From positions 1 through 37,367 of the forward strand of contig PXTN01000123.1 in assembly GCA_003022565.1 (NCBI GenBank): a DNA stretch of 37,367 nt. The letters run 5' to 3'. The notes below the pieces were generated by a model. It did not search any database, was not told the origin of the DNA, and saw only the letters and a program-made list of their open reading frames with translations. Shown in pieces: positions 7,156 through 10,152 of the stretch (position 1 is its first letter; every line of letters begins with the position of its first letter). A program made the translations under genes and the position numbers. Origin of the DNA: Bacteroidetes bacterium QS_3_64_15. Its GTDB lineage: Bacteria; Bacteroidota; Rhodothermia; Rhodothermales; Salinibacteraceae.

Positions 7156-7809
7156 GAGACACGAAGGGGGGAAAGAGTAAAAAATGTTTGCTGCACGTCG
7201 CAATGTACGAGTGGGAAGATCCCGCATCAATAGGATTCCACATCAATTCCGCGATCCGCCCCAGATTTGTGCCGAGGGCCGGGTGCCTCGCCTTTGCGCC
7301 GAACGTCCCCGGGGCGCTCAGTGGTCGTTCGACACCGGGGTGCAGTGCGCCTCGATCGTACCCACCCGGAGCGGCAACGGCATCATGCGGCGCCTGGAGC
7401 GCGACGGGCGCGAGGAGAACACTCCGCCGGCCAAACGGAGCCGAATGCCTACCGGTGACGTCGGTGAGTTCAGCGGCGTCCGTCTTGCCACGGACACTCA
7501 TCCTAGCAATGCCGTTCTGCCAAACGCCCCTGAGCGGGCCCTCGGGAGAGGCGAGGGCGCGGTGTAGGAGCGGAGGAATGCCCACACGTGTGGACGGACC
7601 AGGCGACATAGAACAGCCAAGACTCCGGCGGATTGTCCGTGAGCGCCTCGTCGAAAACTCTGGGTAGGTAGCCTGCTACAGTGTCAACGGTGATTTTGCG
7701 GATCGAAGCGCGATCTCAAAACCCCGGGTCGGTCGCGTCGAGCAACGTCGAGACCCTCCCAGAATCAGGCGACGTCGTCGGGACGATTTACTTCGTTAGC
7801 ACCGCAGGG

Positions 7810-7881
7810 GCATGACCGTCGGCCCTCGCTGCGCTCGTGTCCCGACTTCGCTGGGAGCAACGCGAGGGCCAACGGTCATGC
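7810..7881. repeat. Long imperfect inverted repeat (20-nt arms, 19/20 complementary, 32-nt loop)
   Basis: Left arm gcatgaccgtcggccctcgc (7810-7829); right arm gcgagggccaacggtcatgc (7862-7881). Confidence 0.85.
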
Positions 7882-7969
7882 TGCCCGCAGCACGAGCACG
7901 TTCCAGGGCGCGCCCGAAACGTGTCCTGACCACTGTACCTTAGGGTTGAGCGGGTTGGAAAACAGAAAA

Positions 7970-8028
7970 GGAAGCCTCACTTTCCCGATGAACCAGCATC
8001 ATTTTCTGAATCAGGAAAGGAGGCTTCC
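7970..8028 (+). promoter_or_regulatory. Hairpin sequestering the Shine-Dalgarno of the IS110-family transposase
   Basis: GGAAGCCTC-AC-TTTCC (7970-7985) pairs with GGAAA-G-GAGGCTTCC (8014-8028); SD aaaggagg (8016-8023) lies in the right arm, 6 nt before ATG 8030. Confidence 0.7.
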
Positions 8029-8029
8029 C

Positions 8030-9241
8030 ATGCTCAACATAACCACCGTACGCGATGAAGTTCACACCGAGAACCTCCTTGTCGTCGGCGTCGACGTGAG
8101 CAAGGACAAGTTGGACCTCTATGCCGATCATACCGATCCAGCGGACAACCAGCGCCAGGAGCTCGATGGAGAGATTCCAAACCGTAGCGACGAGATCGAA
8201 GAGATGCTCCGCAGGCTCGCCGGCTATGCAGAAGAGAAGGGCCTTGAGGGGCTGCTTGTCATCTGCGAACCCACGGGCGGTTACGAGGATCAGCTCTTCG
8301 AGACGGCTCGTCGGCTCGGTCACGAGACCGCCTATGCCAACGGCGAGCATGTCTCGAAGGCCAGCGTCATCGAGTCCGGGGATCCGGGCAAGACTGACTC
8401 GATGGACGCTCGGGTGATTGCGATGATCGGAGAAATGGACAAGACCCAGCAGGAGCGCGTCTTGGAGGGAGAGCACGCGCTTCTCCGCGAATTGGGTCGG
8501 ATGTACGAGGCGGAGGACCAGGCCGTCGTCCGGGTTCGGTGCCGCCTGCATGATCTTTTGCGCAAGCTGTTTTGCGATCTGGAGAAGGGAAAGAGGTTTG
8601 TCTTCTCCAACACCGGCGGAGCAGTGGCGGAGATATACGGGTGGAACCCGCAGAAAATCGTCGACGACGGACGAGAGCGCTTCCGGAAAAAGATGAAAGA
8701 GAAGGTCAAAGGCGTGCATGAGGCGACCCTCCAGGCGCTCTTCGAGCAGGCCAGGCGGTCGGTTCGACAGCACCGCCCGCCGGCCGAGCGCGAGATGCTC
8801 GAAGAGCGCGTGCGGCAGCTGTGGGCCGATTACGCGCGACACGAGAGGCGCAAGGAGGAGATTGCCGCCCGGATGGGAGAGCTCTTTAAGCAGCTGAACC
8901 GGAAGGGCGAGGCGCCCGATCGGATCGATGGGATCGACGAGGCACTGATGGGAAGGCTCATCGCCGAATCCGGCCCGCTCTCCGACTTCGACCACTGGCG
9001 GGAAGTGCTGCACTACTGCGGATTGAACCTCTACGAGCGGGAAAGCGGGACCTATAAAGGAGAGACCAAAATCTCGAAGAAAGGCCGATCCCGGTTCCGG
9101 AAGGTGCTGGGACAGGCCGCGTTTGCTCTGGTGCAGGGCGAGGGTCCCTTCGCAGCCTACTTTGAGCGAAAACGAGCCGAGGGAATGAACTACTGGAAAA
9201 GCATGGTGGCAACGATGCGGAAGCTGTGCAAGGTGCTCTAA
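8030..9241 (+). CDS. IS110/IS1111-family transposase (DEDD + Transposase_20), C-terminally truncated
   Basis: VVGVDVSKDKLDLY, LLVICEPTGGYED, KTDSMDARVIA (DEDD) and C-terminal YERESGTYKGETKISKKGRSRFRKVLGQAA; stop TAA 9239-9241 is created by a 19-bp tandem duplication. Confidence 0.93.
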   Translation: MLNITTVRDEVHTENLLVVGVDVSKDKLDLYADHTDPADNQRQELDGEIPNRSDEIEEMLRRLAGYAEEKGLEGLLVICEPTGGYEDQLFETARRLGHETAYANGEHVSKASVIESGDPGKTDSMDARVIAMIGEMDKTQQERVLEGEHALLRELGRMYEAEDQAVVRVRCRLHDLLRKLFCDLEKGKRFVFSNTGGAVAEIYGWNPQKIVDDGRERFRKKMKEKVKGVHEATLQALFEQARRSVRQHRPPAEREMLEERVRQLWADYARHERRKEEIAARMGELFKQLNRKGEAPDRIDGIDEALMGRLIAESGPLSDFDHWREVLHYCGLNLYERESGTYKGETKISKKGRSRFRKVLGQAAFALVQGEGPFAAYFERKRAEGMNYWKSMVATMRKLCKVL

Positions 9242-9259
9242 GCTGTGCAAGGTGCTCTA
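9222..9259 (+). repeat. Perfect 19-bp tandem duplication in the transposase 3' end
   Basis: agctgtgcaaggtgctcta at 9222-9240 and again at 9241-9259. Confidence 0.97.
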
Positions 9260-9435
9260 CGGTCTTACCCGGTCGGGAACAGCCTACGACCCGGCCCGGG
9301 TGTCGACCTGCGAGAGCCAGTACGCTGCGGCTCGCTCGTAGCCGTCACTCGTAGCTGACACGCTAACCGTCTGATTGCCACCCAAACTGAACGAGAAACT
9401 GAATAGTACAGAACCGAACCGATTAGTCGACTTAC

Positions 9436-9629
9436 CAGCGGAAGAGGATCGCGACTACTGCTGGACCTCCTGACGCACCCGATGCACATGCGTTGGGAGA
9501 GTCCCTCCCCGACCTTTGTCCCTTCCGCTGCCTTACCGGGAGGAGCAAACATGGCCGATATGGTGAGATGGCCGGGTAGGAGCCTTCTGCTGCCTACAGC
9601 CGAACTTGGTACGATTGCCAGTTTGCTCC
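9436..9629 (+). ncRNA. Candidate bridge/seek RNA region: two consecutive stem-closed domains 3' of the transposase
   Basis: Domain 1: cagcggaag (9436-9444) / cttccgctg (9522-9530). Domain 2: ggagcaaac (9542-9550) / gtttgctcc (9621-9629), enclosing hairpin gtaggagccttctgctgcctac (9576-9597). Strand and extent inferred. Confidence 0.4.
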
Positions 9630-10034
9630 CGTTGTGAGAGATCAATCGGCGACCGCTGCTCTCAGTAACGAAGACCTGAAAAAGTGAGGCTTCTCCGACA
9701 GGTACCGGACCTGTCTCGCAATCCGACTTGACATTTACCCAATGGTGAGGTCGGGGTGACGGGCCAGTCCACGGGTTCTGCGATCGCTTGCTGACTGGAA
9801 CCAAGAATGAGCGTTGACAGAGCCCCACTCGGTCCAGAGACGCTGATCTGCGCTCCCGTCGGACTCACCGAAAAGCAGGAGGTGACATTGCTTCGCAGCG
9901 GGCATCGGGCGAGTGGATACGACGCCTTGTCGGCCCCCACGTCCAATTCCAATCCGGACAGTGCGACTGGCAGTACCGACGCGAGGCCTCCACTCCCATA
10001 CCCCCAGAAATCCCTCTTCAGCGCCCACAGACGC

Positions 10035-10069: not shown

Positions 10070-10078
10070 GTCGAGTCG

Positions 10079-10152
10079 TGCGCTCGGGAGGATTCGAACC
10101 CCCGGCCTTCGGTACCGGAAACCGATGCTCTGTCCGACTGAGCTACGAGCGC
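10079..10152 (-). tRNA. tRNA-Arg (anticodon CCG)
   Basis: Minus strand GCGCTCG TA GCTC AGTCGGACA GAGC A TCGGT TTCCGGT ACCGA AGGCC GGGGG TTCGAAT CCTCC CGAGCGC A; complete cloverleaf, loop TTCCGGT gives anticodon CCG. Confidence 0.95.

What the first reader, a model, noticed from the sequence alone, without database searches (positions are those of the whole stretch)
9341..9700. Candidate bridge/seek RNA in the 3' non-coding end of the IS110/IS1111 element
Downstream of the original transposase stop there are ~340 nt with no convincing ORF but two consecutive stem-closed domains: cagcggaag/cttccgctg (9436-9530) and ggagcaaac/gtttgctcc (9542-9629), the second enclosing a hairpin at 9576-9597. 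Two successive large loops is the kind of architecture described for IS110-family guide (bridge/seek) RNAs, and IS1111-group elements carry theirs 3' of the transposase. The guide loops cannot be assigned from one copy.
Basis: partly seen in the sequence, partly recalled or inferred. Interest (0 to 1): 0.7.

Follow-up and report, generated by a model that had tools for sequence, protein, structure and literature searches.

The report
Bridge RNA of an IS110-family transposon
The stretch behind this broken jumping gene encodes a two-loop guide RNA of the recently discovered 'bridge RNA' kind, one loop reading the element's own ends and the other its landing site, a short palindrome repeated in related bacterial genomes.

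Summary
The finding holds. Both stem-closed domains (9436-9530, 9542-9629) are real, fold better than all 200 shuffles, and recur in a 49%-identical relative with 34/34 pairs kept, 9 through compensatory changes. A covariance model of the two finds the same RNA in three more distant relatives. They match the element's junctions at 7935-7936 and 9750-9751 (core GT) in the order of the IS621 bridge RNA. Rejoined flanks give GTGTCCTGACCACT-GT-CGGGGTG, one base from copies of a palindrome (GTCCCGAC[C/T]ACTGTCGGG) repeated in related genomes. Two corrections: the ends lie 34 and 58 bp outside the inverted repeat; and by guide order, repeat position and transposase length this is an IS110-type element with its RNA on the 3' side, not a canonical IS1111. 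This copy's transposase is truncated by a 19-bp duplication. Expression and activity are untested.

The parts
7937..9751 (+). whole IS110-family element, 1815 bp including one copy of the core GT
   Evidence: rejoined flanks regenerate a repeated genomic palindrome with a single GT; guide matches
7922..7936 (+). left target flank plus core GT (7935-7936)
   Evidence: TGTCCTGACCACTGT; left part of the palindrome
7937..7945 (+). left end (RD) ACCTTAGGG; with the core it supplies the -10 of the circle-junction promoter
   Evidence: GTACC is complementary to RDG; left ends are conserved in relatives
7970..7985 (+). 5' arm of the 5'-UTR hairpin; holds the left copy of the inverted repeat (7971-7983)
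   Evidence: fold; 13-bp perfect inverted repeat
8014..8028 (+). 3' arm of the 5'-UTR hairpin, covers the ribosome-binding site just before ATG 8030
8030..9241 (+). IS110-family transposase (DEDD + Transposase_20), truncated by the 19-bp tandem duplication 9221-9258; former stop 9339-9341
   Evidence: Pfam PF01548 3.3e-16, PF02371 1.1e-15
9427..9640 (+). bridge (seek) RNA, whole two-domain unit as covered by the covariance model
9436..9530 (+). domain 1, target-binding loop
   Evidence: fold, and 2 compensatory pairs in its closing stem
9452..9460 (+). left target guide (LTG) CGACTACTG; [quoted passage not shown]
   Evidence: 9/9 to the palindrome form CCGACTACTGT; GACxACTG in this copy's own flank
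9507..9513 (+). right target guide (RTG) CCCCGAC; complementary to GTCGGGG 9750-9756 (match runs on to 9515)
9542..9629 (+). domain 2, donor-binding loop
   Evidence: fold, and 7 compensatory pairs
9560..9567 (+). left donor guide (LDG) ATGGTGAG, identical to the element's right end 9742-9749
9608..9612 (+). right donor guide (RDG) GGTAC, complementary to left end GTACC 7935-7939
   Evidence: homologous AGGTACA in L004
9681..9693 (+). right copy of the 13-bp internal inverted repeat
9728..9733 (+). TTGACA, -35 of the promoter that would form at the circle junction (17-nt spacer to TACCTT)
   Evidence: sequence; same TTGACA-N17-TACCTA in L004
9750..9764 (+). core GT (9750-9751) plus right target flank
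   Evidence: GTCGGGGTGACGGGC; right part of the palindrome

Best explanation
The 3' non-coding region of this IS110-family element encodes a bridge RNA of about 200 nt. Shown by sequence: two stem-closed internal loops; loop 1 carries a left and a right target guide; loop 2 carries a left and a right donor guide; the guides match the element's own junctions; the target is a repeated palindrome. Inferred from IS621 and ISEc11/ISEc21: the transposase binds the RNA, loop 2 holds the joined ends of the circular element, loop 1 holds the palindrome, and strands are exchanged at the core dinucleotide GT. The RNA is probably transcribed from the promoter formed when the right end (TTGACA) meets the left end (TACCTT). 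This copy's transposase has lost its C-terminus, so the copy probably moves, if at all, only with an intact transposase supplied in trans.
For: Fold z = -4.0. L004 relative: same two domains, 34/34 pairs kept, 9 compensatory, slid controls 36-52% paired. Model R1 finds L123 (1e-9), L043 (6.5e-9) and L136 (2.6e-5) 3' of their transposases and on the same strand. Guide-junction matches: 1 of 20000 shuffles as good for W, 10 of 20000 for L004; random junctions 3 and 19 of 20000; swapped partners at chance level. LTG and RTG differ between W and L004 while the flanking stems are conserved. Empty site: joined flanks match repeated palindromes across the junction, 22 of 23 nt in G009. Palindrome core: 4 copies in the own genome, 10 in G009, reversed-pattern control 0 in both. 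Prediction test: the right target read off the L004 RNA (GTCATGTGG) was fixed before its empty site was seen; the site in G003 reads GTCGTGTAG.
Against: RDG is only 5 nt here. LTG meets this copy's own left flank with an interior mismatch and a mismatch at the second core base; LDG mismatches the first core base. L004's present right flank does not fit its RTG (the neighbourhood looks rearranged, beside another transposase remnant), and with the empty-site sequence exact matching gives 37 of 20000 because of a wobble. Core and loop-strand limits were set after seeing the matches. Covariation rests mainly on two sequences. The model did not detect relatives L005, L035, L036 and L038, and guides could not be assigned cleanly in the more distant relatives. 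No transcript data.
Confidence: 0.92

Rival explanations
1. The region is only a structured 3' end of the transposase mRNA (stability or transcription end) and the guide matches are chance.
For: Structured 3' regions are common, and no transcript data exist.
Against: Guide-junction matches in two independent elements at about 5e-5 and 5e-4, gone when partners are swapped; the loop strands vary while the stems are kept; the joined flanks match a repeated site.
Confidence: 0.04
2. It is a canonical IS1111 element with ends 7 bp and 3 bp outside the inverted repeat (about 7964 and 9696) and a seekRNA of top-then-bottom guide order.
For: 3' position of the RNA; perfect 13-bp inverted repeat.
Against: Conserved left and right end motifs lie outside the repeat in relatives. 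Two genomes with two copies each keep identity out to CACC|GT or CACC|AT, well outside the repeat. The flanks rejoined at 7935/9750 give the palindrome. The guide order is bottom-then-top.
Confidence: 0.03

Closest known systems
IS621 bridge RNA (Durrant et al. 2024, PMC11208160)
   Same: two internal loops, target loop then donor loop, order LTG-RTG-LDG-RDG, core dinucleotide shared by both loops, target a repeated palindromic (REP) sequence
   Different: encoded 3' of the transposase instead of in the left end; core GT instead of CT; different sequence and stems; transposase about 430 aa before truncation against a 328-residue IS621 chain in the PDB
IS1111-group seekRNAs, e.g. ISEc11, ISPa11, ISKpn4 (Siddiquee et al. 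2024, PMC11187229)
   Same: encoded in the 3' non-coding region; inverted repeat present; a promoter would form at the circle junction
   Different: guide order reversed (bottom-strand match first here); inverted repeat 34 and 58 bp inside the ends instead of 7 and 3 bp; longer transposase
ISEc21 seekRNA (IS110 type; Siddiquee et al. 2024, PMC11187229)
   Same: bottom-strand match 5' of the top-strand match; junction promoter; no target duplication beyond the core
   Different: ISEc21 has its non-coding region upstream of the transposase

Membership tests
IS110 family (DEDD transposase) | DEDD_Tnp_IS110 and Transposase_20 domains | tested here: met
   PF01548 3.3e-16 and PF02371 1.1e-15; D22, E80, D123, D126 invariant in A2; ISCro4 and IS621 are the best PDB matches
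Bridge RNA | two internal loops closed by stems, conserved in relatives | tested here: met
Bridge RNA | loop guides pair with target left/right and donor left/right around a shared core | tested here: met
   weaker at RDG (5 nt) and at single core bases
Bridge RNA | target guides agree with the uninterrupted target | tested here: met
   W. L004: (5 of 7 bases beyond the core, one more as a wobble pair)
Bridge RNA | RNA is expressed and bound by the transposase | not testable with these tools
   needs RNA sequencing or pull-down
IS1111 group | longer non-coding region downstream of the transposase | tested here: met
   RNA at 9427-9640, after the stop
IS1111 group | subterminal inverted repeat 7 bp and 3 bp from the ends | tested here: not met
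   13-bp repeat at 7971-7983 and 9681-9693, ends at 7937 and 9751
IS1111 group | top-strand guide 5' of bottom-strand guide | tested here: not met
   bottom-strand guide 9452-9460 precedes top-strand guide 9507-9513
IS1111 group | transposase of about 340 aa that groups with IS1111 in a tree | tested here: inconclusive
   about 430 aa before truncation, which is too long; no tree with labelled references was made

The most novel reading that the evidence does not exclude
This clade, found here in Bacteroidota-type, Neomarinimicrobiota and Lentisphaerae records, is a distinct lineage of IS110 elements that combines the IS621 guide order with a 3' bridge RNA and an internal inverted repeat whose left arm also forms a hairpin over the transposase start, perhaps coupling translation to the state of the element.
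Probability: 0.3. Interest if true: 0.55.

Novelty: new member of a known kind. Interest (0 to 1): 0.5.

Why it matters
It adds a bridge RNA with all four guides readable from sequence, from a lineage far from the studied ones, with IS110-type guide order on the IS1111 side of the gene. That bears on how the RNA moved between the ends of these elements. It also shows again that such elements settle in repeated palindromes, as IS621 does in REP sequences. The named guides make direct tests of target choice possible.

Tried and rejected
Rfam: nothing. The genome-contig scan with the single protein and the viral-contig scan found no relatives. Other copies of the element in its own genome: only a decayed left-end remnant (L002). 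Ends placed by the 7/3-bp IS1111 rule: rejected (see rivals). Guide assignment in L005, L035, L043, L123 and L136: single 6-8-nt matches but no consistent set; L035 even suggests the opposite target-guide order, which I leave open. The search for the L004-predicted target in the genus gave one site with one mismatch in an unrelated context in G007; not counted as evidence. The plasmid collection holds only distant relatives (at most 28% identity), so no labelled tree was made.

Full report
Observation. The stretch 9430-9635 folds at -84 kcal/mol, z = -4.0 against 200 shuffles, none as good. In the predicted fold each domain is a closing stem, an internal loop with two single strands, and an apical hairpin. 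No protein family matches the minus-strand ORFs over it and no Rfam family matches.

Element. The gene at 8030-9241 is an IS110-family transposase; its best PDB matches are ISCro4 and IS621. Its frame is broken near the end by a 19-bp tandem duplication (9221-9258), so about 27 residues are lost; the former stop is at 9339-9341. A relative with an intact frame, 49% identical, is L004 in a genome of the same genus.

Conserved RNA. MAFFT, which knows nothing of structure, aligns the region of W (this window) with that of L004. RNAalifold then returns the same two domains with the two internal loops open. Of 34 named pairs all are kept in both, 9 through changes on both sides. Sliding the partners by 1-3 columns drops pairing to 36-52%. 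With two sequences the shuffle control is small, so I rely on the slid control and on independent hits: a covariance model from these two finds L123, L043 and L136, all 3' of their transposases and on the same strand. It did not detect L005, L035, L036 or L038, nor any of the less related IS110 loci in that search.

Ends and target. Relatives share end motifs outside the 13-bp inverted repeat. Two genomes with two copies each keep identity out to the same outer point. In W the two junctions are CACT-GT-ACCTT and GTGAG-GT-CGGGG. Rejoining the flanks over a single GT gives GTGTCCTGACCACTGTCGGGGTG. A search with the joined flanks hit sites across the junction in G009, G021, G014 and the own genome. 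Read out, most are copies of a palindrome, GTCCCGAC[C/T]ACTGTCGGG. The 14-base centre occurs 4 times in the own genome and 10 times in G009, with no hit there for the reversed control pattern. This is like the REP targets of IS621 (PMC11208160).

Guides. The longest matches between the 3' region and the right junction of W are CCCCGACCT (antisense, 9 nt, domain 1, 3' strand) and ATGGTGAG (sense, 8 nt, domain 2, 5' strand). In L004 the longest matches at the left junction are ATTTTTGT (sense, 8 nt, domain 1, 5' strand) and AGGTACA (antisense, 7 nt, domain 2, 3' strand). Together they give LTG-RTG-LDG-RDG, the IS621 order. Summed over four guides, 1 of 20000 shuffles of the W loop strands and 10 of 20000 of those of L004 do as well; swapped pairs are at chance. 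The LTG of W (CGACTACTG) fits the TACT form of the palindrome in 9 of 9 bases, better than the flank of this copy. Caveat: core and strand limits were fixed by hand after inspection.

Prediction test. From the alignment I read the L004 right target guide as predicting GTCATGTGG and searched for it before its empty site was known. Another copy of L004's left flank, in G003, continues ...ATTTTTGT-CGTGTAGTG: 5 of 7 bases beyond the core agree and one more is a wobble pair. The right flank L004 has today does not fit, and lies in a transposase remnant; I read it as rearranged (inference).

Expression (inference). At the circle junction TTGACA (9728-9733) would stand 17 nt from TACCTT; L004 has the same spacing to TACCTA. 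Junction promoters are shown for ISEc11 and ISEc21 (PMC11187229). The RNA would then be processed from the long transcript.

Classification. The RNA is on the 3' side as in IS1111, but the target guides run bottom-strand first, as in ISEc21 and IS621; the inverted repeat is 34 and 58 bp inside the ends; and the transposase is longer than the about 340 aa given for IS1111 (PMC11187229). I file it as an IS110-family element with a bridge RNA, not as IS1111. The same paper notes IS110-type elements with a downstream non-coding region, so the combination is unusual but not unheard of.

Verdict. It is a well-supported new member of a known kind. Not shown: transcription, binding, activity.

Noticed in passing
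window 7970-8028: A strong hairpin just before the transposase ATG covers the ribosome-binding site; its left arm is repeated (inverted) at 9681-9693. Comparable hairpins of different sequence are predicted before the start codon in most relatives, and a third copy recurs at the right end of L004 and L035.
   Followed up: partly
window 9221-9258: 19-bp tandem duplication that shifts the transposase frame and removes about 27 C-terminal residues.
   Followed up: yes
L179-L192 (own genome and G009): Dispersed palindrome GTCCCGAC[C/T]ACTGTCGGG, REP-like, 10 copies in G009 and 4 in the own genome, rare or absent in other members of the genus.
   Followed up: partly
window 7753-7880 and L176: The left flank holds a stretch of roughly 120 bp with inverted repeats (GCATGACCGT...ACGGTCATGC) that is missing from a related sequence on contig C69; pieces of it recur in many related genomes: a small dispersed repeat.
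   Followed up: partly
L002 1470-1650: Decayed remnant of the left end of a related element in the same genome, 71% identical over about 131 bp.
   Followed up: no
L043, L123, L005, L136: More distant relatives have right flanks that resemble integron attC ends (CGCxxGTTATxxG), a target described for some IS1111 elements.
   Followed up: no
window 10078-10152: tRNA-Arg (CCG) on the minus strand, about 330 bp beyond the element.
   Followed up: no
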